Below, piece after piece: positions 9,351 to 20,653 of a stretch of DNA of 39,082 nt; the first letter of the stretch is position 1; each line of letters begins with the position of its first letter. The notes under the pieces are model-generated. The model ran no database searches. It saw only the letters and a program-made list of their open reading frames with translations, and was not told the DNA's origin. This stretch comes from Acidobacteriota bacterium. Its GTDB lineage: Bacteria; Actinomycetota; Acidimicrobiia; Spongiisociales; UBA5794. A program made the position numbers and the translations under genes. Location: contig JADFQA010000032.1 of the NCBI GenBank assembly GCA_022562055.1, positions 1 through 39,082 on the forward strand, in the 5' to 3' direction.

Positions 9351-9384
9351 TAATCAACTGTGACCTCTAATCAACTGTGACCTC
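9351..9384. repeat. Perfect 17-bp tandem duplication over the prfB stop codon
   Basis: Positions 9351-9367 and 9368-9384 are identical on the plus strand (TAATCAACTGTGACCTC). The copy at 9368-9384 encodes the last residues of RF2 on the minus strand, and the other lies just past the stop codon. It looks like a recent slippage duplication; no function is evident. Confidence 0.8.
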
Positions 9385-10501
9385 GATCGTCGACGTTTCG
9401 TGTTCCTCACGCCGCCATTGCAGGTAGGCGTCGATGAACCCATCTAGGTCACCGTCGAGTACACCTTGCACGTTGCCGATTTCATAGTTCGACCGGAGAT
9501 CCTTGACCATCTGGTACGGCTGCATCACATACGATCGAATCTGACGCCCCCAACCGGCCTCGACCTTCTCGCCACGGACAGCTTCTATTTCCTCCAACTG
9601 CAGTTGGCGCGAATGTTCAGCCAGTCGTGATGCAAGGATCTGCATTGCGCGGTTCCTATTTTGGAGCTGCGATCGCTGATTTTGGCAAGCGACCACGATG
9701 CCGGTGGGTAGATGTGTGATCCGCACTGCGGAGTCCGACGTGTTGACATGCTGCCCACCGGCGCCCTGAGAGCGATAGGTATCAATCCGCAGATCGTCCT
9801 GGTTGATCTCTACCTCGCCAATCTCGATCTCAGGGACGACGTCGACACCTGCGAAACTCGTGTGGCGCCTCGCCTGCGAATCAAACGGAGATATGCGCAC
9901 CAACCTGTGTGTGCCGCGCTCGCTCTCAAACGTCCCGTACGCGTGGTCGCCGCGAATGGTGATCGTCGCGGACTTGATACCGGCCTCGTCACCAGACTGG
10001 ATCTCGTCGATGACAAAGTCCAGCGGACTCCGTTCAAGGTAACGAACGTACATGCGCAGGAGAATCTCGGCCCAGTCCTGGGCGTCGACGCCTCCGGCGC
10101 CAGCGTGCACGCTCACGATGGCGGCACGGTCGTCGTACTCTCCGAAAAACAGCGTCTCGCGTTCAAGAGCATCCACCACCGTGCTCAGTGCGCCAAGCTC
10201 CTCAACGAGCTCGGCCTCAGATTCAACATCTCCCTCTTCCAGCGCGATCTCGAGAAGAATCTCGGTGTCGTCGAGTGATTCTGTGAGGCCCCCAACGCGA
10301 TCGATCACACTGCCAAAGCGAGCCAGCTTCTGAGTGATCGCACGGGCACGGACGTCGTCTTTCCAAAGGTCGGGCGCCGCAGCAAGTTCGCGTAAATGAA
10401 CTAGCTCGGCTTCCTTGCCAGGAACGTCAAAGGAACCTCCTGGCGTTATCGAGCCGGGTGCGGAGTTGCTGGATGAGGCGGAGAGGATCGCTGTTGTTCA
10501 T
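9367..10501 (-). CDS. prfB: Peptide chain release factor 2, expressed through a +1 programmed frameshift
   Basis: RF2 terminates translation at UGA and UAA. Translation starts at ATG 10501 (MNNSDPLRL) and reads 24 codons to CTT, which is followed in frame by TGA (10429-10427). The rest of the protein is in the +1 frame, continuing DVPGKEAELVHLRELA, to a TAG at 9369-9367. The combined product is 377 residues. The stop-recognition tripeptide SPF is in LVRISPFDSQ, and the catalytic GGQ is at about 248-250 in SQGAGGQHVNTSDSAVR. This is not a mutation: an AGGAGG precedes the CTT-TGA-C slippery site with the canonical spacing. secA lies 48 bp upstream; ftsE follows after 125 bp. Conventional ORF calling truncates it to a GTG start at 10308. 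Confidence 0.96.
10427..10441 (-). promoter_or_regulatory. RF2 autoregulatory frameshift site
   Basis: On the minus strand the bases read AGGAGG-TTC-CTT-TGA followed by C. The Shine-Dalgarno-like AGGAGG lies three bases before the CTT shift codon, as in E. coli prfB. When RF2 is scarce the ribosome pauses at UGA and slips +1 to GAC. When RF2 is abundant it terminates. The element therefore provides feedback control of RF2 level. Confidence 0.95.
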
Positions 10502-10549
10502 AGTGCGCCCGATGCTACACGGACAAGCGGGCACAACCGCGCCGAAGGG

Positions 10550-13183
10550 TTACTGGCTGGCGCCCGGCTTACCGTGACAGTATTTGAATTTCTTACCCGA
10601 TCCGCAATGACATGGCTCATTGCGACCGATCTTCTGCTTGACGCGAACGGTCGGATGTTTTGCAACAGGTCCCGACGTCTGGACGTTTTTCGGACGTTCG
10701 GGCTGCTTGCGCTGCTCGACTTTGACGTGAAAGACGTACCGAATTCCGTCCCGCTTTACGGAGTCAACAAGATCCGAAAAGGCGTCGTACCCCTCCCTCT
10801 GGTACTCGACCAGCGGATCACGTTGCGCGAGCGCCCGCAGACCGATACCCGAACGCAGATAGTCCATTGCTGCGAGGTGATCTCGCCATTTGTTGTCGAT
10901 AACCGTCAAAATCACCGACCGTTCAAGCTGTCGGAGTAGGTCGGTTCCCAGTTCGGCTTCGCGGGCCACGTACGCCTTGGCGGCTTCGTTGAGGAACGCC
11001 TCGACCACCTCATCCTCGGTGATCGTATCCGCATCTGCAAACGAGGCTCGAGTCAACGTTGATGGGTAGACCTGGGCCATGGCGTGCTCAAGCTCATCCC
11101 AGTCCCATTCATGTGGATCAACGTTCTCGATCACGGCGAGAACTTCGTTTTCGACAACCTCATCGCGCCAAGTCTCGACAAGCGAGCTGGTGTCGTCATC
11201 CTGGAGAACCTGGTTGCGCCATTGATAAATGATCTTGCGCTGCGTGTTCATCACTTCGTCGTACTTCAGTACGTCCTTGCGAATCTCAAAGTTCTGCGAC
11301 TCGACTTGGGTCTGGGCACGTTCGATCGCCTTTGACACCATCCCAGCCTCGATCGGCACGTCGCGGGGAATCTTGAGTCGCGCCATGATCGATGCAACAC
11401 GGTCGTTGGCGAAGCGGCGCATGAGATCGTCCTGGAGAGACAAGTAGAACCGTGACTCACCAACGTCACCTTGACGGCCGGAACGCCCGCGGAGCTGATT
11501 GTCGATGCGGCGCGAGTCGTGTCTCTCGGTTCCTAAAACGTACAACCCCCCGGCATTTAGCACGACTGACTTCGCCGCGGCGGTCTCGACAGTGAACTTC
11601 TTCGTAGCCTCCGCGAGCACCGCAGAATATTCTTGCGCATCGGGCAGGATGTCGAGCTTGCGCATTTCCTGCTCGGCAAGCGCTTCGGGGTTGCCGCCGA
11701 GCATGATGTCGACCCCACGCCCAGCCATGTTCGTCGCAACAGTGACCGCACCCGGTTGCCCGGCCTGTGCAACGATTACGCTCTCGTTGGCGTGCTGTTT
11801 GGCGTTAAGTACCTCGTGTTTCACGCCGCGCCGGCTGAGCAGGCCCGACAAGAGCTCGGACTTCTCGATCGAAATCGTGCCGACGAGTATGGGCTGCAGG
11901 TCCTCGTGACGTTCTACGATGTCATCGACGAGCGCGTCGAACTTCGCTTCCTCATCGATGTACACCAAATCTGGTTGATCGGCGCGGGCGATGTCCTCGT
12001 TGGTGGGAACCACAATGACGTCGAGACCGTAGATCTCCTTGAACTCGCCCTCTTCGGTGACAGCCGTCCCGGTCATGCCACACAGTTTTTCATACATCCG
12101 GAAGTAGTTCTGCAACGTGATCGTGGCGAGGGTCTGGTTCTCCTCTTTGATGCGAACGCCTTCTTTGGCTTCAATCGCCTGATGCTGCCCCTCCGAATAC
12201 CGACGCCCGTCGAGCACGCGGCCGGTAAACTCGTCGACAATCTTCACTTCTCCGTTGTTGATCAGGTAGTCGACGTCACGCTCGTAAAGTTCCTTCGCTT
12301 TTAGCGCGACATCGAGATGTTGAATCATGTCGACGTTGGCGTGGTCGTACATGTTTTCGATCCCGAGGATCTCTTCGACCCGATACACTCCCTGTTCGGT
12401 GGTGATGACAAGCCGCTTCTTTTCATCGACCTCGTAGTCATCGTCGCGACGCAACCGCTGAACGATGCGAGCGAACTCCTTGTACCACTTGCCTGATTCA
12501 CCGACGATCCCTGAGATGATGAGCGGCGTGCGGGCCTCGTCGATGAGGATCGAATCGACCTCGTCGATGATGGCGTAGGCATGACCTTGCTGCACCATGT
12601 TCTGGGGGCGCATTGCCATGTTGTCGCGCAGATAGTCGAAACCGAACTCGTTGTTGGTCCCGTACGTGATGTCTGCTTCGTACTCGGGGCGGCGCTCCTC
12701 CGGCGTCATGGATGACTGGATCAAGCCCACACTCAGGCCGAGGAACTTGTGGATACGACCCATCCACTGCGCGTCGCGTGACGCTAGGTAGTCGTTGACT
12801 GTCACGATATGGACACCGTCACCGGTCAGCCCGTTGAGATACGCCGGCATCGTGCCGACCAAGGTCTTTCCTTCGCCGGTACGCATCTCGGCGATCATGC
12901 CGCGGTTCAAGGCTCCGGCACCAATGACCTGGACGTCGTAGTGGCGTTGACCGAGCACCCGGATCGCGGCCTCACGCACGACTGCAAACGCCTCTACCTC
13001 GAGGTCATCCACCGATTCACCGACCTCCAGACGCTTGCGGAACTCATCTGTCTTGGCGCGCAACTCTTCGTCGGTGAGATCAACAACGCCGGCTTCGACA
13101 GCGTTCACGGCGTCGACAAGTTCAAGAAGCTCTTTGAGATGCTTACCTTCGCCAAAATGCAGGACTTTTCTAAAGATCGACAT
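10550..13183 (-). CDS. secA: Preprotein translocase ATPase SecA
   Basis: The 877-residue motor drives Sec-dependent export through SecYEG. Walker A is MRTGEGKT (about 100-107); the DEAD-type Walker B region reads IIDEVDSILIDEARTPLIISG. The TNMAGRGVDIMLGGNPE and GTERHDSRRIDNQLRGRSGRQGDVG motifs of the second nucleotide-binding fold are present. The C-terminus holds the SEC-C zinc motif CHCGSGKKFKYCHG. The length is typical of full SecA1. The ATG at 13183 has no clear Shine-Dalgarno sequence. A TAGACT box (13198-13193) lies 9 bp upstream, so initiation on a near-leaderless transcript is possible. The 131-bp gap upstream holds nothing else recognised. The prfB start lies 48 bp downstream. Confidence 0.97.
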   Translation of the reverse strand: MSIFRKVLHFGEGKHLKELLELVDAVNAVEAGVVDLTDEELRAKTDEFRKRLEVGESVDDLEVEAFAVVREAAIRVLGQRHYDVQVIGAGALNRGMIAEMRTGEGKTLVGTMPAYLNGLTGDGVHIVTVNDYLASRDAQWMGRIHKFLGLSVGLIQSSMTPEERRPEYEADITYGTNNEFGFDYLRDNMAMRPQNMVQQGHAYAIIDEVDSILIDEARTPLIISGIVGESGKWYKEFARIVQRLRRDDDYEVDEKKRLVITTEQGVYRVEEILGIENMYDHANVDMIQHLDVALKAKELYERDVDYLINNGEVKIVDEFTGRVLDGRRYSEGQHQAIEAKEGVRIKEENQTLATITLQNYFRMYEKLCGMTGTAVTEEGEFKEIYGLDVIVVPTNEDIARADQPDLVYIDEEAKFDALVDDIVERHEDLQPILVGTISIEKSELLSGLLSRRGVKHEVLNAKQHANESVIVAQAGQPGAVTVATNMAGRGVDIMLGGNPEALAEQEMRKLDILPDAQEYSAVLAEATKKFTVETAAAKSVVLNAGGLYVLGTERHDSRRIDNQLRGRSGRQGDVGESRFYLSLQDDLMRRFANDRVASIMARLKIPRDVPIEAGMVSKAIERAQTQVESQNFEIRKDVLKYDEVMNTQRKIIYQWRNQVLQDDDTSSLVETWRDEVVENEVLAVIENVDPHEWDWDELEHAMAQVYPSTLTRASFADADTITEDEVVEAFLNEAAKAYVAREAELGTDLLRQLERSVILTVIDNKWRDHLAAMDYLRSGIGLRALAQRDPLVEYQREGYDAFSDLVDSVKRDGIRYVFHVKVEQRKQPERPKNVQTSGPVAKHPTVRVKQKIGRNEPCHCGSGKKFKYCHGKPGASQ

Positions 13184-13314
13184 AGGAAAACAAGTCTAGA
13201 AGACCGCTGGTTGTTACCGGCGGTATCTCGCAACCGGACTTGTGACTCGGCAACGCGGCGCAGGGGATCCACCGATCACGATCACCGAGATGAATTGGTC
13301 GTTGCGCTGGCGCG

Positions 13315-14658
13315 TCATTGCGCGGGAGCCTCGTTTGAACGGGCGATGATTTCAAGAAGAGCGACCGGGTCGAAATCGGTCTGCTGTGGCAGCAACTGTA
13401 ACGCCACCTCTTCAATGCCGATTAACAGTGGCTCCGGCGAGACTTTGAAGCCGGCCCGGTCCTGCACAACGAAAGTCGCAAGCGGAACGTCCGGTTCGAT
13501 CGCACGCTCGGCAACGACCACTGTCTCACCTGTTTTGAGACGCAGGATCGATCCCGGCGGGAAAACTCCCATCATCGATATGAAGACCTTCACGACATCG
13601 GGATCGTACGAAGACCCGGCCGCGCCGAGCACAACGTCGAGAGCACGGGCGGGTGTTTCCGCCCGGCGGTATGAACGACGAGTAGTGACTGCGTCGTAGG
13701 TGTCGACAACTGCAACGATCCGCGAAAATATGTGCGGTCTGCGACGACGCTGATATTTCGGGTAACCCTTGCCATCAAAACGTGCGTGATGTTCGAGCGC
13801 GACGGTTGCGGCGATTTCGTGACCCTCGCCCCCAGCCGCCAGAATCGCCAACGCACCTTCCTGGGGGTGCAGTTGGATCTCCTTCCACTGGCCGTCGTCG
13901 AGACGCCCCGGGTAATTCAGAGTCGCAGCCGAGACAGCAACTTTGCCAATGTCGTGCAACACAGCACCGACACCGACCGGAATCAGACTTTCCTTGTCGA
14001 CGCCAATCATGCGCCCGGTCGCCAGAGCAAGGATGCAAGTGTTGACAGAGTGAAAAAACGTGTATTCATCATGACTCTTCACAGTCGACAGCAACAGCGA
14101 TGCGCTAGCATGCGAAACAGCGTGTTCAAAGAGTCCCTCGACGGCATCGAAGACCGATGACAGCTCGATCGATCCCTGGCTCGCCATCGACGTCGTCACG
14201 CTGCGCAGAGCGTCTATGCCATCCGTGTACGCCCTCCGCACCGAAGTCGTCGCCGAGTCCTCCGGCTCAAGACCGACGAGCGAGTAGTCGTTGAGTCGCA
14301 CTGTTCCGTCCGCCGGCAGGTCGTCGGAGGATCCCCCGACGAAGGCCGCAAGATCTTCAAGGTCGTCCAACGAAAGCGGCGACTCAAGTGTAATGGAGTC
14401 GATGCCACGCGCCTGCATGTCACGCAAAAGGACGTGGTACTCCAAGGACGTGTGCGGCAAAACAACCCTGTCGAAGTAGAACGCTGAGTCGAAGATCGCT
14501 AGGTCGACGCGACCAGCGCCCCCCAGCAAATCGAGCGCAGCAACCTCGACGGATCTGCTCGCTTCGACAGTGAGGGGATGCGCTGCCGGGTACAGACTGA
14601 GCTGACGCATCAACCTGCGAAGCGACCTTAGAAACAGACCAACGTTCTTTTCGCTCAC
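13315..14658 (-). CDS. HD-GYP domain protein with an N-terminal module of unknown function
   Basis: This 447-residue cytoplasmic protein has an HD-GYP phosphohydrolase domain at about 180-340. It contains His203, HDIGK at 235-239, the HP pair at 264-265 and HHARFDGKGYP at 290-300, followed by VVDTYDAVTTRRSYR. The metal ligands of the family are essentially present, so cyclic-di-GMP hydrolysis is plausible. Residues 1 to about 115 form a separate domain with SLYPAAHP near its start. The same arrangement appears in the upstream HEAT-repeat protein. A C-terminal region of about 90 residues follows the HD-GYP domain. The start is GTG at 14658, overlapping the HEAT gene stop by four bases (GTGA). 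It is the last gene of the hpf operon; secA follows after 131 bp. Confidence 0.85.
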   Translation of the reverse strand: MSEKNVGLFLRSLRRLMRQLSLYPAAHPLTVEASRSVEVAALDLLGGAGRVDLAIFDSAFYFDRVVLPHTSLEYHVLLRDMQARGIDSITLESPLSLDDLEDLAAFVGGSSDDLPADGTVRLNDYSLVGLEPEDSATTSVRRAYTDGIDALRSVTTSMASQGSIELSSVFDAVEGLFEHAVSHASASLLLSTVKSHDEYTFFHSVNTCILALATGRMIGVDKESLIPVGVGAVLHDIGKVAVSAATLNYPGRLDDGQWKEIQLHPQEGALAILAAGGEGHEIAATVALEHHARFDGKGYPKYQRRRRPHIFSRIVAVVDTYDAVTTRRSYRRAETPARALDVVLGAAGSSYDPDVVKVFISMMGVFPPGSILRLKTGETVVVAERAIEPDVPLATFVVQDRAGFKVSPEPLLIGIEEVALQLLPQQTDFDPVALLEIIARSNEAPAQ

Positions 14659-16619
14659 GAGACCTCAAGACTTTCGCGTGCAGCATGTTTGAGCGCACGG
14701 ACCTGGCTGCTAAAGCTGAACCGTTTCGCCGCAAGGCGGCGCAGCGAATCGCGAGCAACATCGGTGTTGAAGGTTCCGAGAATTTTGATGAGTTGAATCG
14801 CGACTTCTTGTTTGACCCGTTGTCTAGCAAGCTCATCGACGAGAAGTCCGTCGAGGTTTGGTGCATCGCTGGAACGCAAAAGGGAAACCGCGGTCTGACG
14901 AACACGCTCGTTGTCGTCCGCCAGACTTCTAATCAAGATCGGCGCAGCCCCGGACCGCATCAACCGCACAAGGCTGCGCAGCACTTCGACACGCACGCGG
15001 TGCTCGTCGTGGGCTAACAATCGTCGCAGCCCGGGAACGGCGGCGTCACGGTCCGTTTTACCGAGCACGATCGCCAGATTACGGATGACATACCAGGGTT
15101 GGTTGACAAGATAATCATCGAGCACTCGCGGATTGCGGTTTGCGGCCGAAGCAAGCATCTCCGTTATTGCTCGGCGCACTTGGCCATCGTCCTCGACGGC
15201 GAGTTGACGAACCAACGGGTCGACGGCGGACACACCGAACTGCTCGAACAAATCAAGCGCCTCTTCGGTCGGACTCGAGCCGCCGTGTGTCGCGATCATT
15301 AGACGCAGCGTTTCGGGCGAAAGTATCTTGGCGACACCCTCATGAACTATCCCAGCGCGCTCTCTGGCGAATGGAGGATCAGCGAGTACTGCAGAGACAT
15401 AAAGTTGGGCCTCATCCAAAGTACTGTCGCGAATCATCCTGACGACCCTTGCTCCCCACACCCGCACAACGCGATGAAAACGATCGTCGCGATATTCGCA
15501 TTCGAGCAACGCTCGTAAGGTCGCCCTAGCCAGTTCACCGTAATCGAGAGCGATGCGCATCTCACTCTGAAGCGCGAGCAGGGTGTCAGCAACACCATCT
15601 TTCGACGCGTCAGCGACAACCGCGGAAACCCTGGCGGCAACCGCCATGCGTGCAGCCTCGACGTCTCTCGACGACTCGAGTCCTTCGAGGAGATCCGCGG
15701 GAGCGGCAGAGGAATCGAACGACGCCAATTCGGCGTACTTCAAGAGGAGACCTCGACCGCCCTCGCTCAAATCGGGAAGGAAGGCAGATAGTTCGGCTCC
15801 GGTGAACTGATCGAGGAATACCTGATGGCGCTCGTCTGAAAGACGTTCGAGTGCGCGTTCCATAACCTCCAGTTGAATCGCATGTGGTAGAAAAAAGAAC
15901 GATTCGATGAAAGTGCGGAACCCCTTCCACACATCAACGTCGCCCTGCCGAAGGGTCGCAATCATCGCCTTCGGTCTCTCAGCAAGCGGCCACGCCGTCG
16001 CATGAAGCTCCTCGATTCCGCCAATGAACTCGCCAGCCGGATCATCCTTGCTCCCGAGAACCGCGGTGGCGACGTCGATAGGGTCTTCTCCACGTTGGGC
16101 AGCGGCGGCCGCGGGCACTGACAGCGTGGAATAAGCCCCGTCGTCGTGTTCTTCTTCGGATGCCGGATCGCCGTCTCCGTCAACGAAGGACAACAGACCT
16201 CTCTCGAAGACTTCGATACCTTCAATTCCAAGTCCGCGAACTACGGAATGCGCCCCGCCTTGGGAACGCACCTCATCGTCGTGGGTTGCAATCACCCCAA
16301 AAAAGTCGATGAGCGAAAGCGAAGTGACCGCCGGGTCGAATCTCAGGAACTCAACGTCGTGAACGAACAGCTCGCGAGCAAGACGTTCAGCTCCTTCACG
16401 CGTCGGTGTGGGCTCGCCATCTTCGTTGAGAAAGGTGCCGGGCCCTATGCCTATGGTGAACGGGGTCTCAAGCGCCTGCAAGACGTCAAGGGCACGGGCA
16501 AAAGCTGGCTGTTCTCCCGGGTTCGGATAAAGCGAATACGTAGTCCACGCAGTGCCTACCGCGTCAAGAATGGCCCTGAGTTGATCATCGGGAGATTCTG
16601 TTTCGGAAGCCCACGCCAT
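14655..16619 (-). CDS. HEAT-repeat protein, function unknown
   Basis: This 654-residue soluble protein has no signal peptide or membrane helix. The N-terminal region (1 to about 115) contains YSLYPNPGEQPAF at 28-40 and LSLIDFFGVIA, mirroring the N-terminus of the HD-GYP protein encoded next. The middle is helical. The C-terminal third carries HEAT-like repeats, for example VPGLRRLLAHDEHRVRVEVL and APILIRSLADDNERVRQTAV, suggesting a protein-binding scaffold. The ATG at 16619 lies 3 bp from the stop of the response regulator, and the stop overlaps the HD-GYP start. The gene is likely to act with both neighbours. No enzymatic motif was seen. Confidence 0.75.
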   Translation of the reverse strand: MAWASETESPDDQLRAILDAVGTAWTTYSLYPNPGEQPAFARALDVLQALETPFTIGIGPGTFLNEDGEPTPTREGAERLARELFVHDVEFLRFDPAVTSLSLIDFFGVIATHDDEVRSQGGAHSVVRGLGIEGIEVFERGLLSFVDGDGDPASEEEHDDGAYSTLSVPAAAAAQRGEDPIDVATAVLGSKDDPAGEFIGGIEELHATAWPLAERPKAMIATLRQGDVDVWKGFRTFIESFFFLPHAIQLEVMERALERLSDERHQVFLDQFTGAELSAFLPDLSEGGRGLLLKYAELASFDSSAAPADLLEGLESSRDVEAARMAVAARVSAVVADASKDGVADTLLALQSEMRIALDYGELARATLRALLECEYRDDRFHRVVRVWGARVVRMIRDSTLDEAQLYVSAVLADPPFARERAGIVHEGVAKILSPETLRLMIATHGGSSPTEEALDLFEQFGVSAVDPLVRQLAVEDDGQVRRAITEMLASAANRNPRVLDDYLVNQPWYVIRNLAIVLGKTDRDAAVPGLRRLLAHDEHRVRVEVLRSLVRLMRSGAAPILIRSLADDNERVRQTAVSLLRSSDAPNLDGLLVDELARQRVKQEVAIQLIKILGTFNTDVARDSLRRLAAKRFSFSSQVRALKHAARESLEVS

Positions 16620-16622
16620 GGC

Positions 16623-17273
16623 TCAGCCGATCGAAATGAGGTTCTCACGTACTGCATACAGCACCGCTTCATTGCGCGAATGCAGGCCGAGCTTGTCGAG
16701 AATGTTCCGAATGTGGTTCTTGACGGTGTTTTCGGAAATAAAGAGCGCTTCGCCGATCGACCGCGAAGTCATCCCGTGAGCAACCAAGCCGAGGACCTCT
16801 ATTTCCCGGCCTGTCAGCTTCGGCTTGCGGGCCTGTAGAAGTTCCTGATGCCGCAGCAATTGCCGGCACACATCGAACAGTTTCCCGGCCATGCGAGACG
16901 AAATCACGGCCCCTCCCCCGACAACGCGTTCGATTGACTCGACGAGCTGATCGAACGGAGTGTCCTTGACAATGTAGCCCCGAGCTCCACTCTTGAGAGC
17001 GGAGAGCATGTCCTCTTCACTTTCAGACCCGGTGAGCAGAATTACCTGACAGTTTGGCGCTACTGCGGCGATCTTCTCCACAGCTTCAAGACCGGAAACT
17101 CCGGGCATCAGCACATCGAGCAGCACGATGTCCGGTTGTAACCGCTCGGCGCCCGCAACGGATCCCTCGGCCGTGTCGGCCTCGCCAACCACGTCAAAGC
17201 CGGCTCCTCGCAGCGCAGAAGTCAGACCAGCTCTGAACAGGGGTACGTCGTCAACGACGAGCAGTTTTATCAT
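16623..17273 (-). CDS. NarL/FixJ-family response regulator
   Basis: The 216-residue protein has a receiver domain (about 1-120) with acidic pair Asp8/Asp9, phosphoacceptor Asp53 in LLDVLMPG, Thr81 and Lys103. It is followed by a LuxR-type helix-turn-helix (about 152-210), in which LTGREIEVLGLVAHGMTSRSIGEALFISENTVKNHI can be read. All residues for phosphotransfer are intact, so it should be a phosphorylation-controlled transcription factor. No histidine kinase is encoded nearby, which makes it an orphan within this window. The start codon overlaps the hpf stop by four bases (ATGA), a strong sign of co-expression with the ribosome hibernation factor. Confidence 0.93.
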   Translation of the reverse strand: MIKLLVVDDVPLFRAGLTSALRGAGFDVVGEADTAEGSVAGAERLQPDIVLLDVLMPGVSGLEAVEKIAAVAPNCQVILLTGSESEEDMLSALKSGARGYIVKDTPFDQLVESIERVVGGGAVISSRMAGKLFDVCRQLLRHQELLQARKPKLTGREIEVLGLVAHGMTSRSIGEALFISENTVKNHIRNILDKLGLHSRNEAVLYAVRENLISIG

Positions 17274-17821
17274 GTCGGCTCAATCAGTCCTAGCGTTCCA
17301 TCTCGGCGGTGATACAACACACAGTGGTTGCCCGTGTTGGCGTCCAAGAAGAAGAAGAAGGCATGGCCCAACATCTCCATCTGCAACACCGCTTCGTCAA
17401 CCGACATCGGTCGCATCTCGAACCGCTTCGTCCTCACGACTCGCGGCCCTGCGTCAAACTCATCATCGGATGGAGCTGTAGGAGTATTGAGATGTTTCTT
17501 TTCGGCGTTTCGGGACCGCTGCATCAGCCGTTCCTTCAAACGTCGAAGCTGCCGTTCAAACTTGTTCAACGCGATGTCGAGCGCCGCGATGTCATCAGAT
17601 GCGCTCGACTCAACACGAACCGTGTGGCCAGCCTGGTGGGTCGTGATTTCAACCCGAAACTTCTCGTCGACGAGGCGCGGGTTGTGCTCCTCAGTGAACT
17701 CGACATCTGCTGAGGATCCCCCGGCATCGAAGATTCGGCCAGCATGCCGCACCTTTTCCTCGGCAATCTGACGAACGTGTTCTGAAACGCGCATGTTGCT
17801 GCCATGGACTCGAACCTTCAC
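17270..17821 (-). CDS. hpf: Ribosome hibernation promotion factor, long form
   Basis: This 183-residue protein has an N-terminal S30AE domain (about 1-100: VKVRVHGSNMRVSEHVRQIAEEKV, beta-alpha-beta-beta-beta-alpha pattern) and the C-terminal dimerisation domain of long HPF (about 128-183: KRFEMRPMSVDEAVLQMEMLGHAFFFFLDANTG). Long HPF binds the 30S decoding region and pairs ribosomes into 100S dimers during starvation. The GTG at 17821 was chosen because an AGAGGAG ribosome binding site lies five bases upstream (17827-17833); the longer in-frame form adds a leader without homology. It is the first gene of the hpf-regulator-HEAT-HD-GYP operon. The 132 bp between it and comF hold no recognised feature. 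Confidence 0.95.
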   Translation of the reverse strand: MKVRVHGSNMRVSEHVRQIAEEKVRHAGRIFDAGGSSADVEFTEEHNPRLVDEKFRVEITTHQAGHTVRVESSASDDIAALDIALNKFERQLRRLKERLMQRSRNAEKKHLNTPTAPSDDEFDAGPRVVRTKRFEMRPMSVDEAVLQMEMLGHAFFFFLDANTGNHCVLYHRRDGTLGLIEPT

Positions 17822-17953
17822 CTGGACTCCTCTCGGACGACACGGAACGCGCAACACCGCGGTGCGAACGTTTGGGACACGCAACTTGGAGAGGCAGCAT
17901 CGACGCAGACCCCCTGCTCCTGCACGATTGCGGGTTCAGCCACGCAGCCTCCT

Positions 17954-18571
17954 TCATAGGTCGTCAGTTTGGCGACCTCTCGCAGTAGTGATTTTAGCCG
18001 AAGACGTCACCAATAGCGCTCCGACGATTCGATCAACGCCATCAGCCAATGCAGCGGCCCGGAGTGCAGCGTCGATGGTCCGTCCTGTCGTTATGACATC
18101 ATCGACAACGACCGATCCAGGTGGCACGGATCTGACCGTGCGAAATACCGCACCACCGCGCTCTACAAGAAGACCACGCGCGTGACTCGGCCACCAGAGA
18201 CTAGGAGCGAAACTGCGCACCACCGGCAAACCGGTTGTCAACGCAACCGCAAGCGCTAGTTCGAGCGCCGGGTCGACCCCGTAACGCAGACGACGGACCG
18301 AGGATCGCGGGATCGGGATCAGCGCGTTCGTCCCCTCCGGAAGCACGGCAGCCATCGGTCGCGCAAGAAGTGTGGCGACGCTGACAATGCCTTGATATTT
18401 CAGCCGGTGGACCAAAGTCCGTGCAGCCCCCTCATGACGAAATGCCGCAACGGCCCGGATGCCTCGCGGCGTCAATCTGTCGGCAGCAGGCGACAGAGTC
18501 GAGCGACAGGCGACACACAGCGGGCCAGCGCCCCAGAGCCCGCAGGCAGCGCAAACAGGAATCGTCGTCAC
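17954..18571 (-). CDS. comF: ComF-family phosphoribosyltransferase-like protein
   Basis: This 205-residue protein has an N-terminal zinc-finger-like CxxC pair (CAACGLWGAGPLCVAC), a helical linker (RTLVHRLKYQGI) and a C-terminal type I phosphoribosyltransferase fold. The PRPP loop reads VVVDDVITTGRTIDAAL (about 154-170). ComF proteins are linked to uptake of transforming DNA in competent bacteria, but the family is widespread in non-competent species and no other competence gene is in the window. The start is GTG at 18571. The comF-hpf-secA order resembles that of other Actinobacteria. The C-terminus has no unusual extension. Confidence 0.85.
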   Translation of the reverse strand: MTTIPVCAACGLWGAGPLCVACRSTLSPAADRLTPRGIRAVAAFRHEGAARTLVHRLKYQGIVSVATLLARPMAAVLPEGTNALIPIPRSSVRRLRYGVDPALELALAVALTTGLPVVRSFAPSLWWPSHARGLLVERGGAVFRTVRSVPPGSVVVDDVITTGRTIDAALRAAALADGVDRIVGALLVTSSAKITTARGRQTDDL

Positions 18572-18775: not shown

Positions 18776-20653
18776 GTGACGTTCGACGTTGCGGCGACAC
18801 GCGAGAGAAACCGGCAGCGGAGGTTGGCGCGCCTCGTTGCCATACTCACCCCGCTGGCAGTGTGGGTATGGGTGCGTCAAATGGTCCAACACGACCCGAT
18901 CAGTCCGGGTGTCCCCGACCTCGGACCGGACGCGATCCTGTGGGTTCCAGCGGTCGCAATCGTGTTGGTGCTCGGCCTCGTCGTGATTCTCCCGATGAAG
19001 GGGAACGGCAAATCACCTCACACGATCTACATGCCCGAACAGATCGATGTTGGATTTGGTGACGTGAAGGGCCTTGGGAGCGTCAGTACTGAAGTCCAGC
19101 ACACGCTCGAGGTGTTCCTCAACCACAAGCGGTTTCGTGAAGAGATGGGCGGCAATCCGCGTCGCGGCGTCCTGTTTGAGGGGCCACCGGGCACCGGGAA
19201 GACCCACGTAGCCAAGGCGCTGGCGCGCGAAGCTGGGGTTCCGTTTCTTTATGTGTCCGCGACGGCGTTTCAATCTATGTGGTACGGCGCAACCGCCCGC
19301 AAGATCCGCAGCTATTTCCGCGAACTTCGCAAGGCAGCACGTGAACATGGGGGTGCGATTGGATTCATTGAGGAGATCGATGCGATCGGACTCAAGCGCG
19401 GAGCCATGGAGGGGTCGGTGGCACCGGTAGGTACACATGCGGCCACAGTCAATCACAACGCCATGTCATCAGGCACCGGTGGCGTGGTTAACGAGCTTTT
19501 GATCCAAATGCAATCGTTCGACGAGCCAACGCGACGCAATCGTATTCGCAATTGGTTTGTGCGCCGCGCTAACGGGTACCTCCCCGCACACCGGCAGCTC
19601 AAGGCGGCTTCGCCTGAGTTCGCCAACGTGCTGCTCATCGGTGCAACCAACCGGGCGGATTCGCTCGATCCGGCGCTGCTGCGTCCCGGCCGGTTCGATC
19701 GCATTCTTCACTTCGGCTTGCCAAACCAACTTGATCGGATCGAGTTGGCTGAGTACTTCATGTCGTCGCGGTCACATGTGAAAGGTCTCGATGCCCCGAA
19801 TCGTATCAAAGCAATCGCGGCCCGTACTATGGGATACAGTCCAGCCGCGTTGGAGCGGCTCTTTGACGAGGCCCTGCTCGTTGCGCTACGAAACGGTGAA
19901 AAGGAGTTCTCCGAGAACGATCTACATCAGGCGCAGATGGAAGTCGAAATCGGTCTTCCCAGTCCGACGCTCTACACAACGGCCGACCGCTTGACGATTG
20001 CTACCCACGAGTCCGGGCATGCAGTGATGGCCTACCTCGTTGGCAAGAATCGAGAACTCGACGTGCTGTCAATTATCAAACGGAAAGACAGTTTGGGACT
20101 ACTGAGCCACCGTGACATCGAAGAGCGACACGGAAACTCGCGGTCCGAGATCGTTGCAAGTATCCAGATTTCCCTCGGTGGTATGGTGGCTGAGGAGGAA
20201 ATGATCGGCGAATCCGGAACCGGCCCATCCGCTGACTTGAAGGCCGCAACCGCAACAGCGTGCATGATGGTCGGATCGTACGGCATGGGTGACTCGCTCA
20301 CCTCGTTCCTCGCCGTCCCAGATACGCCGTTCGACGCATCGCTTGTAGGTCGGGTACTCGGCAATCCTGGCGCCAAGGCCGAAGTGGAGGCAATCCTTCT
20401 GTCGGCGAAAGAGCAGACCACCAAACTCATTCGAGAGCACAGCTACATGGTCGAAGCGCTACGCGACGCACTCCTCGAGCGCGAGGAACTCATAGGCAAC
20501 GAAATTCTCGAGGTACTTCGGGACGCCGAAACGCTCGCTTTGCGGTCCGGTCGAGCAGTGGTCGATCTCACCGCGAACGGCGCTGATGTATCCGCCCCAC
20601 CCAGAGAGATCGACCTGTACCAATCACCGGAACCAAACGACGTGCCCTTGTAG
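18776..20653 (+). CDS. Divergent FtsH-like membrane AAA+ metalloprotease
   Basis: The 625-residue protein has two N-terminal membrane helices (about 17-37 and 53-74) separated by only about 15 residues, whereas FtsH normally has an extracytoplasmic domain of 70-100 residues there. The AAA module contains Walker A GPPGTGKT (136-143), the pore-loop equivalent SMWYG and the arginine-finger region LLRPGRFDR. Walker B reads AIGFIEEIDAIG, with Glu199 replacing the usual Asp. Two insertions, of roughly 25 residues after about 208 and 35 after about 250, enlarge the module. The M41 peptidase motif is HESGH (411-415), with a downstream Asp in GPSADLKAAT as third ligand. The peptidase site therefore looks intact. 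The start is GTG at 18776. A house-keeping FtsH is probably encoded elsewhere, making this a specialised paralogue. Confidence 0.88.
   Translation: MTFDVAATRERNRQRRLARLVAILTPLAVWVWVRQMVQHDPISPGVPDLGPDAILWVPAVAIVLVLGLVVILPMKGNGKSPHTIYMPEQIDVGFGDVKGLGSVSTEVQHTLEVFLNHKRFREEMGGNPRRGVLFEGPPGTGKTHVAKALAREAGVPFLYVSATAFQSMWYGATARKIRSYFRELRKAAREHGGAIGFIEEIDAIGLKRGAMEGSVAPVGTHAATVNHNAMSSGTGGVVNELLIQMQSFDEPTRRNRIRNWFVRRANGYLPAHRQLKAASPEFANVLLIGATNRADSLDPALLRPGRFDRILHFGLPNQLDRIELAEYFMSSRSHVKGLDAPNRIKAIAARTMGYSPAALERLFDEALLVALRNGEKEFSENDLHQAQMEVEIGLPSPTLYTTADRLTIATHESGHAVMAYLVGKNRELDVLSIIKRKDSLGLLSHRDIEERHGNSRSEIVASIQISLGGMVAEEEMIGESGTGPSADLKAATATACMMVGSYGMGDSLTSFLAVPDTPFDASLVGRVLGNPGAKAEVEAILLSAKEQTTKLIREHSYMVEALRDALLEREELIGNEILEVLRDAETLALRSGRAVVDLTANGADVSAPPREIDLYQSPEPNDVPL

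What the first reader, a model, noticed from the sequence alone, without database searches (positions are those of the whole stretch)
14284..16619. HEAT and HD-GYP proteins appear to share an N-terminal module (SLYP motif)
Both proteins start with a short helix, then SLYP (residues 21-24 in HD-GYP, 29-32 in HEAT) and a helix with similar hydrophobic spacing. A strand pair follows (VDLAIFDSAFYFD versus FTIGIGPGTFLNEDG), then a helix, and finally LSLDDLEDLAAFVG versus LSLIDFFGVIA. The order and spacing match over about 100 residues. I know of no named domain with this pattern.
Basis: seen in the sequence. Interest (0 to 1): 0.6.

Follow-up and report, generated by a model that had tools for sequence, protein, structure and literature searches.

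The report
Unnamed domain shared by neighbouring proteins
Two adjacent bacterial genes, one for a HEAT-repeat protein and one for a likely cyclic-di-GMP-degrading enzyme, begin with the same protein domain; it has no name in the databases searched, and the two-gene set recurs in at least eight bacterial phyla, which points to an overlooked signalling partnership.

Summary
The N-termini of the HEAT protein (654 aa) and the HD-GYP protein (447 aa) are homologous. Two single sequences show nothing (BLASTP E=26), but family profiles align at 99.5% probability, E=2e-22, over 136 columns; 100 column-shuffled controls never scored above 18 against 112. A HEAT-only HMM finds the window's HD-GYP N-terminus at E=1e-9. 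AlphaFold2 gives the same order of helices and strands for both, with no convincing match in the PDB. Pfam and NCBIfam have no model for it; DUF3391, the usual unnamed HD-GYP N-terminal domain, was tested and does not match.

The wider finding is that HEAT→HD-GYP is a conserved gene pair with a module in each partner, in at least eight phyla. In 23 genomes 74 of 87 module copies lie in a two-module unit (35 adjacent gene pairs, 2 tandem copies within one protein). The module also occurs with GGDEF–AAA–HEAT, histidine-kinase and HEAT–cNMP proteins.

Function is inferred: a regulatory or dimerisation domain coupling a HEAT scaffold to cyclic-dinucleotide turnover. Module-to-module pairing is plausible but unproven; one family has lost the HEAT-side module. 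I found no earlier description, though the literature held is partial.

The parts
16197..16589 (-). Shared N-terminal module of the HEAT protein (about residues 11-141): helix, LYP, helix, strands, helix, strand, helices, strand
   Evidence: hhalign; AF2 model with block pLDDT 95-98 over residues 11-140
14287..14652 (-). Shared N-terminal module of the HD-GYP protein (about residues 3-124)
   Evidence: hhalign; AF2 block pLDDT 85-94 over residues 1-120; hit by the HEAT-only profile A6 at E=1.1e-9
14655..16619 (-). HEAT-repeat protein gene (654 aa)
   Evidence: ORF; Pfam HEAT_2 7e-12 at residues 506-581; same gene order HEAT then HD-GYP in 52 fetched loci besides the window
13315..14658 (-). 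HD-GYP phosphodiesterase-like gene (447 aa), GTG start overlapping the HEAT stop codon
   Evidence: ORF; Pfam HD_5 1.3e-17; aligns with PDB 4mcw; GTGA overlap
13594..14073 (-). HD-GYP catalytic domain (residues 196-355): H203, H235-D236, H264, H290-H291, DGKGYP, D319
   Evidence: Pfam; invariance in 33 relatives; alignment to 4mcw
14119..14256 (-). Linker helices between module and HD domain (residues 135-180), resembling the helices after DUF3391 in other HD-GYP proteins
   Evidence: AF2 helices 136-161 and 167-179; hhalign 75% to gammaproteobacterial pre-HD helices
14877..15104 (-). HEAT repeats of the HEAT protein (residues 506-581)
   Evidence: Pfam HEAT_2
16623..17273 (-). LuxR-type response regulator directly upstream, likely same transcript (3-nt gap)
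   Evidence: ORF; same neighbour in the syntenic Acidimicrobiia loci

Best explanation
The two proteins share a homologous N-terminal alpha/beta domain of about 125-140 aa, without a name in Pfam or NCBIfam (here called the LYP module), and form a conserved bicistronic pair. Shown: homology, same predicted secondary-structure order, persistent adjacency in the order HEAT then HD-GYP across at least eight phyla, and an intact HD-GYP active site in the window protein. Inferred: the HD-GYP protein hydrolyses c-di-GMP or a related cyclic dinucleotide; the HEAT protein is its scaffold or regulator; the module is a regulatory or dimerisation domain that brings the two chains together (module to module, or each as a homodimer) and passes the state of the HEAT partner through the helical linker (residues 135-180) to the HD-GYP catalytic domain. 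The pair most likely arose by an old duplication of the module before the phyla sampled here acquired it, followed by inheritance or transfer of the pair as one unit.
For: Homology: null, independent HMMER cross-hit. Fold. Pairing: 52 fetched loci plus the window have the two genes adjacent with both modules; in 23 genomes 74 of 87 module copies lie in a two-module unit, 35 as adjacent gene pairs and 2 as tandem modules in one protein. Among 99 relatives 43 genomes have both partners, and the two exceptions are at or near contig ends. The pair stays together when its neighbours change (comF-hpf-RR-HEAT-HDGYP-secA context in one group, lost in another). Tree: HD-type and HEAT-type modules separate with two label changes each against a shuffled mean of about 41. 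Signalling context: fusions to GGDEF-AAA_16-HEAT, PAS-HisKA-HATPase and HEAT-cNMP_binding; host genome encodes GGDEF proteins. Metal and GYP residues invariant in relatives. GTGA overlap.
Against: No direct evidence of binding. In one related family (f8) the HEAT protein has lost the module and middle part while HD-GYP keeps its module, so module-module contact is not required there. The mirror-tree partial correlation between the two modules (0.28) is no higher than between the HD-GYP module and the HEAT C-terminus (0.36). Some proteins carry a single module and no obvious partner. The tree has few columns and weak deep branches. PilZ receptors were not found in the host genome.
Confidence: 0.6

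Rival explanations
1. The module is a ligand-sensing input domain, like GAF or PAS, that both proteins use independently to read the same signal; they need not touch each other through it.
For: It sits N-terminal to HD-GYP catalytic domains and precedes PAS-HisKA-HATPase, the position of sensor domains. Foldseek's weak list for the HEAT module is rich in GAF and phytochrome PAS-GAF entries, though none is significant. In f8 the HEAT copy is lost but HD-GYP keeps its own.
Against: Conserved positions are mainly hydrophobic or structural (LYP, HP, helix faces), with no shared conserved polar pocket apparent by eye. It does not explain why the copies come in twos, in trans or in tandem in one chain.
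Confidence: 0.3
2. The shared module is only a relic of gene duplication with a structural role (capping the HEAT solenoid or dimerising HD-GYP), without a joint function of the two proteins.
For: Homologous domains can persist after duplication without interaction; the mirror-tree signal is not specific to the modules.
Against: Adjacency of two otherwise unrelated proteins kept across at least eight phyla while the surrounding genes change is hard to explain without joint function.
Confidence: 0.1
3. Chance resemblance: a short motif plus generic helix/strand spacing.
For: Single-sequence BLASTP finds nothing; the literal LSL match is out of register.
Against: Profile E=2e-22 with a shuffle null far below; the HEAT-only HMM hits the window HD-GYP at 1e-9; same predicted secondary-structure order.
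Confidence: 0.01

Closest known systems
HD-GYP phosphodiesterases with N-terminal regulatory domains (e.g. PmGH, PDB 4mcw)
   Same: Catalytic HD-GYP domain with His/Asp ligands and the GYP motif; N-terminal domain plus helical linker before the HD domain.
   Different: The N-terminal domain here matches no PDB chain by sequence and no fold convincingly; Tyr199 aligns where the three-metal enzymes have Glu, which by my general knowledge fits a two-metal site.
DUF3391 (PF11871), the usual unnamed N-terminal domain of HD-GYP proteins, solved in Bd1817 (3TM8)
   Same: Similar place, length and linker helices.
   Different: Profile comparison of the module with DUF3391-type N-termini gives 0.25-0.63% probability; only the linker after it matches. 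PMC12943098 describes DUF3391 as mainly antiparallel strands plus a C-terminal helix; this module begins with two long helices carrying LYP.
HEAT / PBS-lyase-type repeat proteins
   Same: C-terminal HEAT_2 repeats.
   Different: N-terminal LYP module and a constant HD-GYP neighbour.
GAF domain
   Same: N-terminal alpha/beta signalling-domain position; weak GAF names in the Foldseek list.
   Different: No significant match; TM-scores 0.15-0.18 and VIA best Z 2.7; inconclusive.

Membership tests
HD-GYP domain proteins | HD_5/HD Pfam model above gathering score | tested here: met
   PF13487 64.5 bits against cut-off 27.2
HD-GYP domain proteins | HD dyad, HHxxxDGxGYP, and the His/Asp metal ligands | tested here: met
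   H203, H235-D236, H264, H290-H291, DGKGYP, D319; alignment to 4mcw, invariant in relatives; in this family the motif reads HHxRFDGxGYP
HD-GYP domain proteins | Hydrolysis of c-di-GMP or another cyclic dinucleotide | not testable with these tools
   Needs an enzyme assay
HEAT-repeat proteins | HEAT model above gathering score | tested here: met
   PF13646 45.9 bits against 27.7; PF02985 24.7 against 23.5
DUF3391 (PF11871) | Module matches the PF11871 profile above its cut-off | tested here: not met
   No hit on window proteins; in relatives 14.6-16 bits against 27.8, only profile positions 92-135 and only in the linker; hhalign 0.25-0.63%
GAF domain | GAF fold | tested here: inconclusive
   No significant Foldseek or VIA match; a weak list does not exclude the fold
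LYP module family (defined here) | Both window N-termini belong to one profile family | tested here: met

The most novel reading that the evidence does not exclude
A widespread, undescribed two-protein cyclic-dinucleotide signalling system: a HEAT scaffold and an HD-GYP enzyme encoded together, held to each other by homologous N-terminal domains of a fold not represented in the PDB, with a one-chain counterpart (GGDEF-AAA-module-module-HEAT) on the synthesis side.
Probability: 0.4. Interest if true: 0.72.

Novelty: new variant of a known kind. Interest (0 to 1): 0.55.

Why it matters
HD-GYP proteins are a main class of c-di-GMP-degrading enzymes, but how many of them are controlled is unknown because their N-terminal parts have no assigned function. 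This module is in 74 of 118 sampled genomes of the Nitrospirota-like phylum, 47 of 99 of the Desulfobacterota-like one and 28 of 198 Actinomycetota, without a Pfam or NCBIfam model. It links four signalling outputs (HD-GYP, GGDEF, histidine kinase, cNMP-binding) to HEAT scaffolds or signalling partners and predicts a specific partner for each paired HD-GYP enzyme, which a pull-down or an enzyme assay can test at once. It is also a ready-made new domain-family entry.

Tried and rejected
Pairwise BLASTP of the two N-termini: nothing. Other module copies in the host genome: none found with close-family profiles. Homology to solved structures by sequence: none for the modules. Fold search in PDB and in viral models: nothing significant; the VIA rows for the HD-GYP model cover almost only the linker helices and the HEAT module's best Z is 2.7. 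This does not prove a new fold, because cellular predicted structures could not be searched and coordinates of the two models could not be superposed. DUF3391 membership: rejected for the module, accepted only as a resemblance of the linker. Mirror-tree test for direct module-module coupling: not specific. Constant third partner across phyla: neighbours outside the pair vary, although comF-hpf-RR-pair-secA-prfB is kept within one Acidimicrobiia group. Literature: no paper found on a HEAT/HD-GYP pair or this domain; the library holds open-licence papers only.

Full report
WHAT IS THERE. On the minus strand the window carries a LuxR-type response regulator (17273-16623), a HEAT-repeat protein (16619-14655, 654 aa) and an HD-GYP protein (14658-13315, 447 aa), followed by SecA and peptide release factor 2. 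Response regulator and HEAT gene are 3 nt apart; the HEAT stop and HD-GYP start overlap as GTGA, so the genes are probably co-translated. Pfam sees only HEAT repeats (residues 506-581) and the HD domain (residues 196-355); both N-termini are blank in Pfam and NCBIfam. The host is an Acidimicrobiia-like actinobacterium by its nearest relatives.

BLASTP of the two N-termini gives E=26. I collected 30 HEAT and 33 HD-GYP relatives and compared profiles: 92.9% probability, E=3.8e-7 over 111 co-linear columns, confirmed with the session tool (90.5%). With relatives from other phyla (58 HD-GYP and 54 HEAT N-termini, A5 and A6) the result is 99.5%, E=2.1e-22 over 136 columns. Column-shuffled versions of A6 (100 runs) reached at most score 17.8, and the reversed profile 12.7, against 112 for the real one. 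In an independent test, the HMM of A6, which holds no HD-GYP sequence, finds the N-terminus of the window's own HD-GYP protein in the whole genome at E=1.1e-9. Conversely the HD-GYP profile A1 finds the upstream HEAT neighbours in other phyla at E down to about 1e-8.

FOLD. AlphaFold2 models are confident: HEAT module block pLDDT 95-98 over residues 11-140, HD-GYP module 85-94 over residues 1-120. Order in both: long helix, LYP turn, second helix, strands, helix, strand, helix, then a last strand; the HEAT copy has two extra short helices before the last strand. In the hhalign register the three-state agreement is 78% over 119 pairs and drops steadily when shifted. Direct superposition was not possible with the tools. 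Neither module has a significant PDB match. I do not claim a new fold, because the negative is weak.

Only LYP is conserved, followed by HP in HD-GYP and by P..Q in HEAT; S is incidental. The LSL/LSL word match is three residues out of register. In other phyla the HD-GYP copy has the GG...L....I.V tail seen in HEAT; the window's HD-GYP version is shorter there.

A CONSERVED TWO-GENE UNIT. One scan of genome contigs with the HD-GYP family, followed by HMM searches of the flanks, shows the HEAT gene immediately upstream of HD-GYP on the same strand, each with a module, in 52 loci besides the window. By record title these include Actinomycetota (Acidimicrobiia, Anaerosomatales/Coriobacteria), Nitrospirae, Acidobacteria and Aminicenantes, Omnitrophota, Gemmatimonadetes, Zixibacteria, Deltaproteobacteria (Desulfobacterales, Syntrophaceae) and Planctomycetota. 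All but a few are metagenome-assembled genomes, so single labels should be read with care. In 23 such genomes 87 module copies were found; 74 lie in a two-module unit, 35 as adjacent genes (the first usually 550-880 aa, the second usually 380-620 aa) and 2 as tandem modules in one chain. Two of the 13 leftovers (G107:C9, G118:C289) have the HD-GYP neighbour but below threshold. Among 99 relatives 43 genomes have both partners; the two with one partner (G030, G097) have it at or near a contig end. Within one Acidimicrobiia group the order comF-hpf-RR-HEAT-HDGYP-secA-prfB is kept; in others the pair stands in other surroundings.

EVOLUTION. In a tree of 124 modules, HD-GYP-type and HEAT-type copies each need two label changes (shuffled mean about 41), with mirrored groupings of loci; the deep split is weakly supported (77/87) and there are few columns. 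This fits one old duplication followed by inheritance or transfer as a pair.

OTHER HOMES OF THE MODULE. GGDEF-AAA_16-module-HEAT (L172, L221, L223), GGDEF-AAA_16-module-module-HEAT (L173; L233 and L174 have the same tandem spacing but were not Pfam-scanned), module-PAS-HisKA-HATPase (L190), module-HEAT-cNMP_binding (L224), and longer HEAT proteins. Sampled prevalence: 74 of 118 genomes in the phylum of L099 (Nitrospirae by title), 47 of 99 in that of L110 (Syntrophaceae by title), 28 of 198 Actinomycetota.

CATALYSIS. The window HD-GYP domain aligns with PmGH (4mcw); H203, H235-D236, H264, H290-H291, D319 and DGKGYP are present, and Tyr199 aligns where PmGH has a Glu. The two-metal reading of that change rests on general knowledge. 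The host genome has GGDEF proteins (4 matches) and no PilZ hit. Some Coriobacteria/Anaerosomatales paralogues have YDLGK in place of HDxGK but are still paired with HEAT, which suggests a regulatory rather than catalytic role for those.

MECHANISM. Best supported, but inferred: the HEAT protein is the regulatory scaffold of a cyclic-dinucleotide phosphodiesterase, and the module is the domain through which the chains associate or are tuned, with the helical linker relaying the state. The frequent two-module stoichiometry, in trans and in cis, favours modules working in pairs. Against an obligatory HEAT:HD-GYP module pair: family f8 keeps both genes but its HEAT protein (about 385 aa) has lost the module, and the mirror-tree test is not specific. 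A sensor-domain reading stays open.

COMPARISON WITH KNOWN KINDS. It is not DUF3391. The open-licence literature searched holds no description of this domain or pair that I could find; PMC12943098 discusses unassigned HD-GYP N-termini as DUF3391-like. I rate it a new variant of a known kind: an unnamed regulatory domain in familiar signalling architectures, with an unusual conserved partner gene.

Noticed in passing
L187:1910-3418:-, L188:1521-3008:-, L189:4132-5634:+: Paralogous HD-GYP partners in Coriobacteria/Anaerosomatales have YDLGK instead of HDxGK (loss of a metal-binding His) and HH.RHDxQGYP, so are probably catalytically dead, yet stay paired with a HEAT gene.
   Followed up: partly
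L205:4061-5203, L206:2411-3565, L207:3494-4645, L208:3602-4756: In one related family the HEAT protein is cut to about 385 aa and lacks the module and middle region, while the neighbouring HD-GYP keeps its module: a natural deletion.
   Followed up: partly
L173:741-4973:+, L174:3801-7001:-, L233:1000-5271:+: Giant proteins with two tandem modules; L173 is GGDEF-AAA_16-module-module-HEAT, and the other two have the same module spacing.
   Followed up: partly
L190:2140-4191:-: Module at the N-terminus of a PAS histidine kinase.
   Followed up: partly
L224:2315-4999:+: Module plus HEAT repeats plus a cyclic-nucleotide-binding domain in one protein.
   Followed up: no
window 9367-18571: Gene order comF - hpf - LuxR response regulator - HEAT - HD-GYP - secA - prfB is conserved in a group of Acidimicrobiia, tying the pair to a ribosome-hibernation and secretion neighbourhood.
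   Followed up: partly
window 18776-20653: AAA protease-like ORF resembling FtsH (by eye) on the opposite strand next to the cluster; ordinary.
   Followed up: no
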